Shown one piece after another: positions 45,931-53,899 of a stretch of DNA of 64,000 bases. The DNA comes from Moraxella sp. K1664 (GTDB lineage Bacteria > Pseudomonadota > Gammaproteobacteria > Pseudomonadales > Moraxellaceae), in NCBI RefSeq assembly GCF_039693965.1, contig NZ_CP155576.1:2046001-2110000 (forward strand), in the 5' to 3' direction. Position numbers and translations under genes: made by a program. Under the pieces are notes generated by a model. It ran no database searches. It was not told where the DNA came from and was given only the letters and a program-made list of their open reading frames with translations. Within the stretch, counting starts at the first letter, position 1. Each line of letters begins with the position of its first letter.

Positions 45931-48900
45931 ATGTTAATGATAAATATCAATATCAATACCCCTACTCATAAACCCAACTTCCACACCCACTTTACCACCC
46001 AAGCGGATGCAAGTTTCGCCCTGTGGCTTGCTACCCTTGCCAAAGACGGCACGGATTTGACCTTAGTCATTTGCCAATCCCAAAGCGAACTGCAACGCCT
46101 TGCCGATGAGCTACATTTTTTTGGGGTATCCGCTCATGTGTTTGCCGATTATGAGACGCTTGTTTATGACAATCTGTCGGTACACCAAGACATCATCTCC
46201 GAGCGGATTGACCTTTTGACGCATATGCCAACAAGGGGTGTGCTACTGGTGAGCGTACAGACACTCATGCAAAAAATCACACCGCCAAGCTATCTGTTGG
46301 GGCGGTTTTTTGATTTGAATGTGGGCGATAACTTTGATATAGAGCGTGAGCGTGAACGCCTTGCCAAGGCAGGCTACAAGGCGGTGGACAACGTCTATAT
46401 GGCAGGCGAATTTGCCGTGCGTGGGAGCATTGTGGATATTTTTGCGGTGGGGCAAGCCTTGCCGTTTCGTTTGGAATTATTTGATGATGAGATAGAAACG
46501 ATTAAATTTTTTAATCCTGATACTCAGCGAACCGTTACCGATGAAGAGCTTGATAAGCTCAAAAAAGACGGCGTATTTGACGACAAAACCGCCCCAACGT
46601 CGCCCAAAGTGGCAAGTTTTCGCCTGTTGCCTGCCCGTGAATTTGACCTAGACGACAAAGAGACGTTCCGCCAGAATTTTGCAAGCCTTTTTCCCAATGC
46701 GTCGGCTCGCAAGGTGGAATTTTATAATGACGTTATGAATGGCATACAGCCGTCTGGGGTGGAGTATTATGCACCGCTGTTTTTTGATTTGCATGAATGG
46801 CAGACGACAGGCACGCTGTTTCATTATCTACCCAAAAATACGCTGGTTGTCTGTGATGACAATTTGTCCGCTCATCATCACAACTTTTGGGAGCAGGTAA
46901 ACGCACGCTATCATTCTCGGGCGTTTGATAAGGACGTGCCGATTTTACCGCCTGATTATTTGTATTTGCCAAGCAATGAATTTTTTCAAGCCTTAAAAAC
47001 TTACCCAAGAGCAGTATTCCAACAACCGTTCGTGATGAGCCTGTCGAACCATGACGGTTTTCCGCCACCCGCAGGCATGGCTCAGGGCGAACGGAAAACA
47101 GCGAATGGCAACAAAGAAAATCCGCTTTCCTTATTTCGCCAATTTACCGCCCACACCGTCCCCAATTTGCCAATCAATCATCAAAAAGACAAACCATTGG
47201 GCGAATTTTTGGACTTTGTGGGGGCGTGCGATGAGCCGATTTTATTGGTGTGTGAAAGTGCTGGTCGCCGTGAGATTATTTTGGAATTATTAAAGGGCAA
47301 ACTTGACAGCGACACGGTGGCGGATTTTGGTGAGTTTTTGGCAAATTTGGATAAATTTAACCCTAACAAAACCGTTCGCCCTGAGCCTGTCGAAGGGTAC
47401 GGTTTTGGCAAAATTGCCCTAACCGTTGCTCCGATAGAGCGTGGATTATGGCTAAAAAATGAGCAAAATCAAGGCTTTTGTGTCATCAGTGAAACCCAAA
47501 TTTTTGGGCGAGTGGTCGCAACCACCAAACGCAAACGCCAAAATGTCTTATCGCAAGCCTTTTTGATAAAATCGGTAAGCGAGATGACCGAGGGGTCGCT
47601 TGTCGTGCATTTGTCCTATGGTATTGGGCGGTATCAAGGGCTTGTTGTGCTTGACGTGGGCGAGGGCGAGCAGGAATTTATCCATATCAAATATGCCGAT
47701 GATGCCAACGTCTATGTACCGATTACCAATCTTGCTTTGATTGGGCGGTATAGTGGTACCGATAGCGAGGCGGTGCAGTTGTCAAAACTTGGCTCGGGCA
47801 AGTGGGATAAGGCACGCCAAAAGAGCCTGACCGACATTTATGACGTGGCAGCAGAGCTGTTGAATGTGCAAGCAAGGCGAAATGCCAAACAGGGCATTCG
47901 TTTTGACATTGACATGGCAAGCTATGAGCTGTTTGCCAGTGGTTTTGCCTATGATGAAACCCCCGACCAACAAAGTGCCATAGAGGCGGTGATGTTTGAC
48001 ATGAAGCAGACCAAGCCCATGGATAGGCTTATCTGTGGTGATGTGGGTTTTGGCAAGACAGAGGTTGCCATGCGTGCAGCATTTATTGCGGTGCAGGCAG
48101 GTTATCAGGTGGCACTGCTTGTGCCAACCACACTACTGGCAGGACAACACGAGGACAGTTTTAAGGACAGATTTGCCGATTGGGCGATTAAGATTGAAAG
48201 TTTGTCTCGTTTTTCGTCTAAAAAAGCCCAAGATAAGGTGCTTGCCAGCTTAGCCGATGGCAAGGTGGATATCATCATTGGCACGCACCGACTGTTACAA
48301 GATGATGTTAGATTTAAAAATTTAGGCTTGATGATTATTGATGAAGAACATCGTTTTGGCGTACGCCACAAAGAAAAAATCAAAGCCATGCAAGCGGACG
48401 TGGATACGCTCACCATGACCGCCACGCCCATTCCACGCACGCTCAACATGGCTCTGTCGGGTATGCAGGATATTTCTATCATTGCCACACCGCCTGCTAG
48501 AAGGCTTGCCATTAAAACATTTGTCGCCGAAAAAAATGAGCAGACAACCAAAGATGCGATTTTGCGTGAGATTTTGCGTGGGGGGCAGGTGTATTATTTG
48601 CACAATGACGTGGCGAGCATTGACACGGTGGCAGAGAACTTGTCCGAGCTGATTCCTGAGGTGCGTGTGGGCGTGGCTCATGGGCAAATGGCACACAAAG
48701 AACTCCACGATGTCATGAGTGATTTTTATCATAAAAAAACCAATGTGCTTGTCGCCAGTACCATTATTGAAACAGGCATTGACGTGCCAAATGCCAATAC
48801 GATTATCATCAACCGAGCCGATAAGTTTGGGCTTGCCCAGTTGCACCAACTGCGTGGGCGAGTGGGGCGGTCTCATCATCAGGCGTATTGTTATTTGTTT

Positions 48901-50675: not shown

Positions 50676-50818
50676 GTTGGGAAATTATCAAAATTTGGCG
50701 GATTTTACCATAAAATCATCATTTTTTGGTAAATATGGCTAAAATATGCCAAAAATTTTTGTAAAATTGGTAAAAATTAGTGCAAAATTTTGGTATGATA
50801 ATACAATGATTTATTAAA

Positions 50819-50834
50819 GTTTTCCGTTCGCCCT
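50819..50834. repeat. Left part of REP-like unit interrupted by IS110
   Basis: GTTTTCCGTTCGCCCT is the left end of the same unit whose remainder (CTGAGCTATGCCTG to CGAACGGTTTT, 52075-52139) lies beyond the IS110 element. Removing 50835-52076 restores GTTCGCCCT-GAGCTATGCC, matching unoccupied copies in mfd and at 54156. Confidence 0.88.
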
Positions 50835-50835
50835 T

Positions 50836-51030
50836 GTATCAACCCAACACCAAACCTAGATTATCTGCTAGAATGTTGTTGGGTTATACAAGCAAAGAGA
50901 ACACGGGTTCGCCCTTAGTGTCTTAACACTGGTGCTCAGATGGTGTCCTTTGCTTGTCATCTTAACTCTGAATGGTATCTAAGTGCGTTTATTAAAACAG
51001 ACACTGCATAAACAAGGCAAGAGACAGATG
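50836..51030 (+). ncRNA. Predicted bridge RNA of the IS110 element
   Basis: Three domains can be drawn. (1) A 5' stem: GTAT-AACCCAACA (50836-50849, one bulge) with TGTTGGGTT-ATAC (50877-50889). (2) A target loop: stem ACAAGCAAAG (50888-50897) with CTTTGCTTGT (50948-50957), ACAC/GTGT inside, left guide GTTCGCCCT (50907-50915), inner hairpin AGTGT-CTTA-ACACT (50917-50930), right guide GCTCAG (50934-50939). (3) A donor loop: CATCT/AGATG and CTCT/AGAG (50958-50969 with 51020-51030), left guide ATGGTATCT (50972-50980), inner hairpin AGTG, GTTT-ATTA-AAAC, CACT (50982-51005), right guide ACAAG (51012-51016). The guides match target and donor at the CT core. The 3' stem covers the transposase start codon. 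Confidence 0.82.
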
Positions 51031-52011
51031 ATACACTATATTGGCATAGACATCAGCAAAGCAAAGTTTGATGTTGCATTTATAAACCCAAGCACAAATA
51101 AAGTAAAAACCAAGGTTTTTAACAACAACAAAGCAGGCTTTGATTTACTGCTTGCTTGGTTAAAAACCAATGTCAGCAATCATCTTGATGAGCTACACAT
51201 CATCCTAGAAGCAACAGGGGTTTATCATGAACACCTAAGTGAGTTTCTTGATGATAATAATATCAAGCAAAGCATTGTCAATCCTAACTATGTCCGCAAA
51301 TTTGCAGACAGTTTGGGGGTAATCCATAAAACTGATAAAAAAGACAGCATTATTTTATCAAGGTATGGTTATAGCCACAAGCCTGAGGTTTGGGTAGCAC
51401 CTAGCATTGAAGCCAAACAGCTAAAAGCTCTATTGGCTCGCTTAGAAGCACTCAAAGAAGATTTGCAACGAGAGCAAAACCGACAAGAGTTGCTCTTATC
51501 ACCCAATCTGCCCGATTTGGTTAAAGCATCCATGCAAACAGTCATCAATGTCCTTCAAGAGGAAATTGCCAAACTCACCAAAGACATTGATGACTTTGTT
51601 GACAAACACCCAAGTTTAAAGCAAGACAAAACCTTACTTGAAACCATTGACGGTATTGGTTCTGTTATTGCCAAAGAAGTGGTATGCTTAATACATACCA
51701 AACAATTTAAAAAAGCCTCACAGATGGCTTCGTTTTTAGGCTTAATACCCAAACAAAGACAGTCAGGTGTCTTTAAGGGAGCAACCAAACTGTCCAAACA
51801 AGGGCAAGTCTCTTTGCGTGCTAAGCTGTATATGTCTGCAATGAGTGCCATTCGTTATAATAGCACCATTAAGGCATTTTATGAACGATTACAACAAAAC
51901 GGTAAAACCAAAATGCAAGCCTTATGTGCTTGTATGCGTAAATTGGTACATATCTGTTTTGGTGTTATCAAAACCCAAACATCCTTTGAGCAACAAGTAT
52001 CTTTAAGTTAG
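51028..52011 (+). CDS. IS110-family DEDD transposase/recombinase
   Basis: The 327-residue protein has the RuvC-like N-terminal domain HYIGIDISKAKFDVAFI (first Asp), HIILEATGVYHEHLSEFL (Glu) and KTDKKDSIILSRYG (Asp pair), a coiled-coil middle (about 125-190) and the C-terminal Transposase_20 domain with IDGIGSVIAKEVVC, ASQMASFLGLIPKQRQSGVFKGATKLSKQGQVSLRAKLYMSAMSA, where the Ser of QSG is a candidate nucleophile by analogy with IS621. ATG 51028 was chosen as start; GTG 50983 lies inside the RNA donor loop. The gene looks intact, so the element may be active. Confidence 0.93.
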   Translation: MIHYIGIDISKAKFDVAFINPSTNKVKTKVFNNNKAGFDLLLAWLKTNVSNHLDELHIILEATGVYHEHLSEFLDDNNIKQSIVNPNYVRKFADSLGVIHKTDKKDSIILSRYGYSHKPEVWVAPSIEAKQLKALLARLEALKEDLQREQNRQELLLSPNLPDLVKASMQTVINVLQEEIAKLTKDIDDFVDKHPSLKQDKTLLETIDGIGSVIAKEVVCLIHTKQFKKASQMASFLGLIPKQRQSGVFKGATKLSKQGQVSLRAKLYMSAMSAIRYNSTIKAFYERLQQNGKTKMQALCACMRKLVHICFGVIKTQTSFEQQVSLS

Positions 52012-52048
52012 TTTGTAAGATACTAGATACCAGATACTTAAAAAACCA

Positions 52049-52076
52049 TTGACTTAGGTGGGGTATCATGGTATCT
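52049..52076 (+). promoter_or_regulatory. Outward promoter half at the right end of IS110
   Basis: TTGACT (52049-52054) is followed after exactly 17 bases by TATCT (52072-52076). In a circular form the first base of the left end (T, 50835) completes a -10 of TATCTT, directly upstream of the predicted bridge RNA. In the integrated form the sixth base is G. A promoter assembled at the joined ends is known for IS110-group elements. Confidence 0.65.
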
Positions 52077-52139
52077 GAGCTATGCCTGCGGGTGGCGGAA
52101 AACCGTTATGGGCAGGCATAGCTCACCACGAACGGTTTT
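52075..52139. repeat. Right part of REP-like unit interrupted by IS110
   Basis: CTGAGCTATGCCTGCGGGTG continues to CACCACGAACGGTTTT. TGCCTGC and GGCAGGC and the outer CCGTTCG/CGAACGG (the other arm lies at 50825) make it palindromic. It ends 30 bases before leuA. Confidence 0.8.
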
Positions 52140-52168
52140 AATTTAAAAAAAATATAGCGAGCCTAGCC

Positions 52169-53899
52169 ATGCCAACACCCAAAATCACCCCCAAAAACCC
52201 CGCTTTTGACCATACCAAATACCGTCCTTTTGAATTTGCTCCCAAATTAGAAAATCGGACTTGGTGTGATAAAAGAATTGAAAAAGCCCCCATCTGGGCG
52301 AGCGTGGATTTGCGAGACGGCAACCAAGCCTTGATTGACCCCATGACCATTGAGCAAAAATTACGCTTTTTTAAATTGCTCGTAGCGGTTGGTTTCAAGG
52401 AGATTGAGATTGGCTTTCCGTCTGCCGCCCAAGTGGAATTTGACTTTACACGTCTTTTGATTGAAGGCGGTCATGTGCCTGATGACGTTACTTTGCAGGT
52501 GCTGGTGCAGGCTCGTGAGCATTTGATTGAACGCACCTTTGAGAGCCTAAAAGGGGCAAAACGTGCCATTGTTCACGTTTATAACAGCACGTCAAGGGTG
52601 CAACGTGATAAGGTCTATCAGCTTGATAAGGACGGCATTAAGGCGATTGCGGTCAATGGAGCGACCCTGCTTAGAGACATTGCCAAACGCCATCCTGAGA
52701 CCGAGTGGATTTTTCAGTACAGTCCAGAGAGTTTTAGCCAGACCGAGACTGATTTTGCCGTAGAAGTCTGCCAAGCGGTGTGCGATGTGTGGCAACCCCA
52801 AGACGGACAAAAAGTGATTTTGAACCTACCTGCCACCGTAGAAGCGTCCACGCCCAACCTGTATGCCGACCAGATTGAGTATTTTTGTCGTCATTTGCCA
52901 AGCCGTAAAGACGTGATTGTGAGCCTACACACGCACAACGACCGTGGTTGTGGCGTGGCAGCAAGTGAGCTTGGTGTTATGGCAGGGGCTGACCGCGTGG
53001 AGGGTACGCTACTGGGTAATGGCGAGCGTACGGGCAACATGGATATTTTGACCATGGCAATGAACCTGTACACGCAAGGGGTAGACCCTGAGCTTGACTT
53101 GTCGCAAGTGAGTGAGATTGTGCAAGTAGCGACTGATTGCACCAATTTGCCCGTACACCCACGCCATGCCTATGTCGGCGAACTTGTGTTTACGGCTTTC
53201 TCAGGCTCGCACCAAGATGCCATTAAAAAGTCGCTTGATTATAATGAAAAACACCCCGAAACCGAACAGCATTGGGACGTGGCATACTTGCCCATTGACC
53301 CTGTGCATATCGGGCGAAGCTATCAAGACGTGGTGCGTATCAATAGCCAGTCGGGCAAGGGTGGGGCGGCGTATATTCTGCAACGTCATTATGGTTTTGA
53401 TTTGCCACGTTGGACGCAGATTGATTTTGCCAAAGTGGTGCAAAACCAAGCCGAGAGTTTGGCTCGTGAGCTAAAAACGGACGAATTGCTTGACATTTTT
53501 ACCAAGACTTATTTAACCCAAGAAACCTTTAAACTTAGTGATTATCAGATTAACAATAAGGGCGGAGATGTGTCATTCAACGGACAAATCGCCACGCCAA
53601 CCGATGTGCTAGAAATCATCGGGCAGGGCAATGGTGCGTTGTCAGCATTTATTGACGGACTGGTCAAGGCGACAGGCAAGGACATTCACGTTACCAATTA
53701 TTCAGAACACGCCATTAACGTCAAGGCGACCGAAAGCCTGCTTGATGACGAGCTGGGCGACAACCAAACCAACTCGGCGGCGGCGGCGTATGTTCAGCTT
53801 AATGTGGCAGGCAAGGTGTATTCTGGCATTGGCGTGTGCAACAGCACTGTATCGTCCATGCTAAAAGGCGTGCTGTCGGCATTGTCGCAGGCGTGGTAA
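52169..53899 (+). CDS. leuA: 2-isopropylmalate synthase LeuA
   Basis: LeuA condenses acetyl-CoA with 2-oxoisovalerate, the committed step of leucine synthesis. The 576-residue protein has IWASVDLRDGNQALIDPMTIEQKLRFFKLLVAVGFKEIEIGFPSAAQVEFDF (catalytic DLRDGNQAL), VIVSLHTHNDRGCGVAASELGVMAGADRVEGTLLGNGERTGNMDI (metal HTHND motif) and a C-terminal regulatory domain with allosteric leucine site (VQLNVAGKVYSGIGVCNSTVSSMLKGVLSAL). The length and the RPFEFAPKLENRTWCDKRIEKAPIW start mark the long LeuA class. A (CGG)4 run encodes SAAAAY near residue 531. The IS110 element sits just upstream and may affect its expression. Confidence 0.96.
   Translation: MPTPKITPKNPAFDHTKYRPFEFAPKLENRTWCDKRIEKAPIWASVDLRDGNQALIDPMTIEQKLRFFKLLVAVGFKEIEIGFPSAAQVEFDFTRLLIEGGHVPDDVTLQVLVQAREHLIERTFESLKGAKRAIVHVYNSTSRVQRDKVYQLDKDGIKAIAVNGATLLRDIAKRHPETEWIFQYSPESFSQTETDFAVEVCQAVCDVWQPQDGQKVILNLPATVEASTPNLYADQIEYFCRHLPSRKDVIVSLHTHNDRGCGVAASELGVMAGADRVEGTLLGNGERTGNMDILTMAMNLYTQGVDPELDLSQVSEIVQVATDCTNLPVHPRHAYVGELVFTAFSGSHQDAIKKSLDYNEKHPETEQHWDVAYLPIDPVHIGRSYQDVVRINSQSGKGGAAYILQRHYGFDLPRWTQIDFAKVVQNQAESLARELKTDELLDIFTKTYLTQETFKLSDYQINNKGGDVSFNGQIATPTDVLEIIGQGNGALSAFIDGLVKATGKDIHVTNYSEHAINVKATESLLDDELGDNQTNSAAAAYVQLNVAGKVYSGIGVCNSTVSSMLKGVLSALSQAW

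What the first reader, a model, noticed from the sequence alone, without database searches (positions are those of the whole stretch)
50819..52139. IS110 element inserted at a CT core inside a REP-like palindrome
The sequence left of 50834 (GTTTTCCGTTCGCCCT) and right of 52075 (CTGAGCTATGCCTG) join to give the same unit seen uninterrupted inside mfd. This fixes the element at 1242 bp to the base, with CT at both junctions and no terminal inverted repeats. REP targeting is established for IS621 in E. coli; the target here is a different palindrome, so REP preference may be a recurrent strategy giving harmless, multicopy landing sites.
Basis: partly seen in the sequence, partly recalled or inferred. 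Interest (0 to 1): 0.75.

Follow-up and report, generated by a model that had tools for sequence, protein, structure and literature searches.

The report
RNA-guided IS110 homing to mobile palindromes
A small jumping element carries a guide RNA whose target-reading letters match a short palindromic repeat, and every full copy found in this genome sits at that same spot; the repeats it lands in appear to be mobile themselves.

Summary
The element is an IS110-group (IS621-like) insertion sequence, 1242 bp with one CT core, window 50835-52076. The genome holds 34 full copies, all in one orientation at CCGTTC[G/A]CCCT^GAGC. Its left end encodes a legible bridge RNA: target guides GTTCGCCCT and GCTCAG plus donor guides, in the IS621 layout. 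Of sites with the perfect 15-mer, 32 of 57 are occupied; of sites with a mismatch other than G-to-A inside the 13-base target, 0 of 10. In 12 lineages scored (this one and 11 sisters) each guide matches its own target better than the others' (0 of 200,000 permutations as good); 8 of 11 sisters insert at the foot of a hairpin. So guide-directed homing to palindromes recurs, but IS110 targeting of REPs was published well beyond IS621 (PMC1525189). Beyond the finding: the landing pads are MITE-like and cleanly absent in two sister species at many loci. Occupied pads carry a rare arm variant just right of the IS (24 of 34 against 4 of 25 empty, p=5e-5), which I tentatively read as flank conversion. 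A new member of a known kind with an unusually clear natural record.

The parts
50835..52076 (+). IS110-group element, 1242 bp counted with one CT core
   Evidence: 34 full copies with the same ends in the genome
50833..50834 (.). left CT core
52075..52076 (.). right CT core
50824..50834 (+). left half of target, CCGTTCGCCCT (guide-matched part GTTCGCCCT from 50826)
   Evidence: CCGTTC[G/A]CCCT at 34 of 34 copies, G in 32 and A in 2
52077..52080 (+). right half of target, GAGC
   Evidence: 34 of 34 copies
50835..51022 (+). predicted bridge RNA region (5' stem, target-binding loop, donor-binding loop); exact ends not determined
   Evidence: fold -57.6 kcal/mol, z -3.03 against 200 shuffles; loop layout shared by 12 lineages
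50907..50915 (+). left target guide GTTCGCCCT
   Evidence: 9 of 9 match to target
50934..50939 (+). right target guide GCTCAG (reverse complement of CTGAGC)
   Evidence: 6 of 6
50972..50980 (+). left donor guide ATGGTATCT, equal to the element's right end
   Evidence: 9 of 9
51011..51016 (+). candidate right donor guide AACAAG (pairs with CTTGT of the left end)
   Evidence: 5 of 6; weaker than the others
51028..52011 (+). transposase/recombinase, 327 aa from ATG (342 aa if the GTG at 50983 is used)
   Evidence: IS621 8wt6 E 1.8e-54; D8, E61, D103, D106, S246, G247 invariant in 6 sister proteins
50819..52139 (.). palindromic landing pad split by the element (left arm to 50834, right part from 52077)
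52081..52092 (+). TATGCCTGCGGG arm variant beside the IS, enriched in occupied pads
   Evidence: 24 of 34 occupied, 4 of 25 empty
47072..47099 (-). uninterrupted unit of the same palindrome inside mfd

Best explanation
This is an IS110-group insertion sequence that works like IS621. The left end makes a bridge RNA. [quoted passage not shown] its donor loop reads the joined ends of the excised circle. The recombinase then exchanges strands at CT. The 13-base target occurs in a palindromic core carried by several MITE-like families, so the element spread to 34 such pads, always in the same orientation. Shown here by sequence: ends, 34 of 34 junctions, guide-target identity, co-variation of guide and target over 12 lineages, dependence of occupancy on guide match, recombinase family. 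Inferred from IS621: RNA expression, circle intermediate, strand exchange at CT.
For: 34 of 34 copies at one site and orientation. Guides 9/9 and 6/6. Left guide at least 7 of 9 at a fixed place in 12 of 12 lineages, 9 of 9 in 7; own targets beat swapped targets, 0 of 200,000 permutations as good (the same before one boundary was corrected by hand). Left donor guide follows the T or C of the right end in 12 of 12 (found by best match to that end, so somewhat circular). Perfect 15-mer sites 32 of 57 occupied; G-to-A sites, which leave a G-T wobble, 2 of 13 (p=0.012); other mismatches inside the 13-mer 0 of 10 (p=0.001). Recombinase matches the IS621 structure at E 1.8e-54 and ISCro4 at 3.5e-49. 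Fold z -3.03. Four congeners show the empty palindrome at leuA.
Against: No RNA, circle or transposition data. The right target guide is only modestly specific across lineages (mean 5.00 of 6 for own targets, 4.34 for swapped) and the right donor guide is short and was not found convincingly in all lineages. Two lineages have only 7 of 9 left guide matches. Four empty 13-mer matches outside the 15-mer context lower occupancy to 32 of 61. No strain of the same species without the copy was available.
Confidence: 0.95

Rival explanations
1. The protein alone recognises the palindrome (its folded or bent form), and the match to the left-end RNA is a by-product.
For: Most targets are hairpin-forming (8 of 11 sisters), and before 2024 transposases were thought to read REPs.
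Against: Guides follow targets one by one over 12 lineages at the same loop position. The other arm of the same palindrome, CCGTTCGTGGTGAGC on its own strand, is never hit (0 of 34). Occupancy falls with guide mismatch.
Confidence: 0.03
2. Many copies spread as passengers: the IS entered a few MITE pads and the IS-bearing MITEs then moved as units.
For: Pads are cleanly absent in G001 at 13 of 25 occupied loci with flank identity of at least 0.70, and IS-bearing pads can show 8-bp target duplications (OL008). L010, L015 and L155 have near-identical pads on both sides.
Against: The same junction occurs in at least three box families and in pads with no recognised box (AA 11, BB 9, CC 3, ?? 4 of 34), which needs repeated entry. 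Empty pads also are lineage-specific (8 of 19 absent), so pad mobility alone explains the pattern.
Confidence: 0.25
3. The excess of the ATGCCTGCGGG arm beside the IS reflects target preference outside the guides, not a change made after insertion.
For: 24 of 28 ATGCC sites are occupied against 10 of 31 others.
Against: The letters after GAGC do not pair with the right guide in either variant (sequence). In five congeners that hold the variant, 3 of 65 guide-perfect sites have it, so this lineage would need its own prior burst. At OL149 the G001 pad is otherwise the same across the printed stretch but has TTGTCGAAGGG.
Confidence: 0.35

Closest known systems
IS621 of E. coli (IS110 group; bridge RNA)
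   Same: Recombinase (E 1.8e-54), long left end with two-loop RNA, CT core, REP target, tolerance of one guide mismatch at a natural site. PMC11208160 passages give 144 of 173 IS621 insertions in REPs.
   Different: Target letters and palindrome differ. IS621 inserts at the foot of the REP hairpin before AC (target ATCAGGCCTAC); here the cut lies inside the 5' arm and is followed by GAGC.
ISPpu9, ISPpu10, ISPa11, ISRm19 (REP-targeting IS110-family elements, PMC1525189)
   Same: All copies in one position of a REP.
   Different: Other genera and REPs; 4 to 7 copies listed against 34 here. ISPa11 is treated as an IS1111 member in PMC11187229 (passage). Not compared by sequence here.
ISEc11 / ISXne4 natural reprogramming (PMC11187229)
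   Same: Related elements with changed guides go to changed targets.
   Different: IS1111 type with the RNA downstream; here an IS110 type with 12 lineages.
MITEAba12 of Moraxellaceae (PMC6382973)
   Same: Small non-coding mobile unit with terminal repeats and target duplication, like the pads.
   Different: 113 bp with 16-bp repeats and 9-bp duplications per abstract and section 8; pads here 8-bp duplications in three read examples and a different core. Sequence not compared.

Membership tests
IS110 family, IS110 group | DEDD RuvC-like N-terminal domain PF01548 and PF02371 C-terminal domain with conserved serine | tested here: met
IS110 family, IS110 group | long non-coding left end upstream of the gene, short right end, no long sub-terminal repeats (distinguishes from IS1111) | tested here: met
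   left non-coding 193 bp, right 65 bp; layout rule from PMC11187229 and PMC11208160 passages
Bridge-RNA system as in IS621 | two-loop RNA with left and right guides for target and donor, each covering the core dinucleotide | tested here: met
   by sequence and fold for three guides; right donor guide weak
Bridge-RNA system as in IS621 | RNA is made and bound by the recombinase | not testable with these tools
   no expression or binding data
Bridge-RNA system as in IS621 | scarless circular intermediate | not testable with these tools
   only precise junctions were seen, 34 of 34
REP-targeting IS (type 1 association of PMC1525189) | 100% of copies in the same position of the repeat | tested here: met
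   34 of 34
REP proper | about 20-40 bp extragenic palindrome, often RAYT-associated | tested here: inconclusive
   palindromic core shared by several MITE-like families and also inside mfd; RAYT not looked for

The most novel reading that the evidence does not exclude
Insertion or later exchange of this IS110 rewrites the target beside it: 12 to about 90 bp of palindrome to the right of the junction are replaced by the arm that sits beside other copies, so the element spreads a flank haplotype as well as itself, inside pads that are mobile too.
Probability: 0.3. Interest if true: 0.6.

Novelty: new member of a known kind. Interest (0 to 1): 0.42.

Why it matters
It offers a natural record of guide fidelity: 34 insertions, about 25 spared perfect sites and about 21 spared one-mismatch sites in one genome. 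The sister set shows guides being re-aimed at different palindromes while the donor loop hardly changes. A guide aimed at a core that several MITE families share gives an element many landing sites that are renewed as the MITEs move. If the flank change is real it would bear on how IS110 junctions are resolved or exchanged between copies.

Tried and rejected
Extended pairing of the right guide beyond GAGC, as a cause of the ATGCC excess: the letters do not pair, so dropped. Recombination between copies judged by mismatched outer boxes: two occupied pads look chimeric (OL005 left B right C, OL152 left A right B), but one empty pad (L113) does too, so it is not diagnostic (read by eye). The box labels are rough regular expressions; L158 was labelled CB but reads as CC.

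Use of congeners to test the arm change at all loci failed because most pads are absent there: same-orientation pads could be compared only at OL149 (G001), leuA and the mfd site. Of the 'pad present' calls, several (OL016, OL009, OL151, OL011, EL109, EL122, EL112) are poor or unrelated alignments by eye and were not used.

Named relatives: the genome-contig scan gave one distant Bacillota locus and plasmids only relatives under 60% identity, so the organism was not identified by a tool; that it is a Moraxella is my guess from recall. No structure was predicted, as the IS621 structure already covers the protein.

Rows dropped: of 24 one-mismatch empty sites, 18 were read. Of 14 sister genomes with a match 11 were scored; G001 and G018 (38% identity) lack the end motif and G286 was left out because its ends were not settled. 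G277's left boundary was corrected by hand. A Fisher test used 12 for the G-to-A empty sites; the right count is 11 and one search replaces it. One search failed on a script error and was rerun, whose output was cut in the middle; the counts come.

Full report
Observation. The junctions are as described: CT at 50833-50834 and 52075-52076, 1242 bp with one core. The gene is an IS110 transposase, closest among solved structures to IS621 (8wt6, E 1.8e-54) and ISCro4 (E 3.5e-49). The acidic residues and the SG motif aligned with the published catalytic residues (positions of IS621 recalled) are invariant in six sister proteins.

Copies. The genome (2,780,008 bp, one contig) holds 34 full copies, all close to 100% identical. 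All 34 have CCGTTC[G/A]CCCT on the left and TGAGC on the right, in the same orientation to the element; 32 have G and 2 have A. Six other IS110-type genes are present. All 12 variable sites among the 34 copies lie after base 553 of the element; the first 553 bases, with the whole RNA region, do not vary. Sites 714 and 820 show all four combinations, a sign of exchange between copies.

Guide RNA. The left end folds into a 5' stem and two loops (z -3.03, one of 200 shuffles as stable). The first loop holds GTTCGCCCT (50907-50915) and GCTCAG (50934-50939), the second ATGGTATCT (50972-50980) and AACAAG (51011-51016). This is the order given for IS621 in PMC11208160 (passages).

Occupancy. The genome has 25 empty perfect 15-mers, 24 with one mismatch and 13 with two. 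Occupied against all: perfect 32 of 57; G to A 2 of 13; other mismatches inside the 13-mer 0 of 10 (Fisher p 0.012 and 0.001). Counting four more empty 13-mers with other outer letters gives 32 of 61 and p 0.029 and 0.0015. None of 34 occupied sites lies in a frame open for 150 nt on both sides, against 3 of 25 empty perfect sites, two of them in mfd (p 0.07).

Sister elements. Of 57 relatives, 7 genomes including this one have a match at 1e-40 or better; of 369 genomes of the class, 9 including this one at 1e-65. Twelve lineages were scored (11 of 14 sister genomes, plus this element). The left guide matches 9 of 9 in 7, 8 of 9 in 3 and 7 of 9 in 2; own targets beat swapped ones (LTG 8.42 against 5.85, RTG 5.00 against 4.34; 0 of 200,000 permutations as good). 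G006 has nine copies: all are flanked by ...CAACC on the left, most by ACGGG on the right, with three departures (ACAAA, ACGCTC, ACAAT). In 8 of 11 sisters the left flank is a stem-loop whose 3' arm ends at the core (background 0.003 to 0.073 each); in G277 (0.16), G199 (0.58) and G186 (0.82) it is not clear. The focal element scores 0 on that test: its target is inside the 5' arm of a larger palindrome and is followed by GAGC instead of AC. Retargeting thus changed the position in the hairpin too.

Empty sites. At leuA four congeners carry an uninterrupted palindrome. At the other loci, with flank identity of at least 0.70, the whole pad is cleanly absent in G001 at 13 of 25 occupied and 8 of 19 empty loci, and in G018 at 12 of 24 and 8 of 19. 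The gaps end at precise borders; three read examples have 8-bp duplications (AAAGCGTT at EL129, CAATTTTT at EL108, AAAATTTT at OL008). Two main outer boxes, TTCCTGCAAAAC and AAAAAGTATGC, and a third with a different spacer surround the same core. I therefore read the pads as MITE-like; no transposase was linked to them.

The arm variant. Right of the junction, GAGC[T/C]ATGCCTGCGGG stands at 24 of 34 occupied and 4 of 25 empty perfect sites (p 5.1e-5). Pads with both arms of this type are 14 of 34 and 0 of 25. Within box A it is 12 of 14 against 1 of 8, within box B 6 of 9 against 0 of 7 (hand tally, tests); box C does not show it (1 of 4 against 1 of 2, same tally). In the five congeners with any such sequence, 3 of 65 guide-perfect sites have it. 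At OL149 the G001 pad matches in the printed stretch but for one flank base and TTGTCGAA in place of CATGCCTGC next to the junction. The mfd pad has the ATGCC arm in both genomes without an IS, so the variant is older than the IS copies there. Sharing of IS variants in all combinations makes conversion between copies, running on into the pad, the reading I favour; preference and hitchhiking are not excluded and one orthologous case is little.

Literature. PMC1525189, PMC11187229 and PMC11208160 were seen as passages, PMC6382973 as outline with abstract and section 8. Seven searches listed no paper whose title or abstract start describes this element, these pads or such a flank change; the library lacks most subscription papers and all preprints.

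Noticed in passing
window 47060-47100 and 47369-47410: mfd carries two palindromic units read through in frame. The first is present in G001 but absent from G018 by a clean 87-base gap; the second is absent from G001 by 45 bases; both lengths are multiples of three. This recalls Rickettsia palindromic elements (recall).
   Followed up: partly
L106-L159, L220-L318: The palindromic core is shared by several box families with different ends, lineage-specific insertion and some 8-bp duplications: MITE-like pads with a common core.
   Followed up: partly
L073-L075, L071, L072: Two other IS110 types of the same genome have copies beside GGGCGAATTGCAATTCGCCC, seen at L073 and L071, with variants at L075 and weaker at L074; L072 is elsewhere.
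   Followed up: partly
window 50779-52169: The IS lies between a likely promoter region (GGTATGATAATACAATG) and leuA, probably in the leuA leader. The promoter scan did not list that site.
   Followed up: no
L001-L034: No variation in the first 553 bases of the element over 34 copies, 12 variable sites after it, with all four combinations at sites 714 and 820.
   Followed up: partly
G000, G001, G005, G006, G018: ACGCACCCTAC, target of the G005 sister element, occurs 15, 8, 6, 1 and 2 times; reversed control 0, 0, 2, 0, 0. This genome is thus rich in sites for an element it does not show.
   Followed up: no
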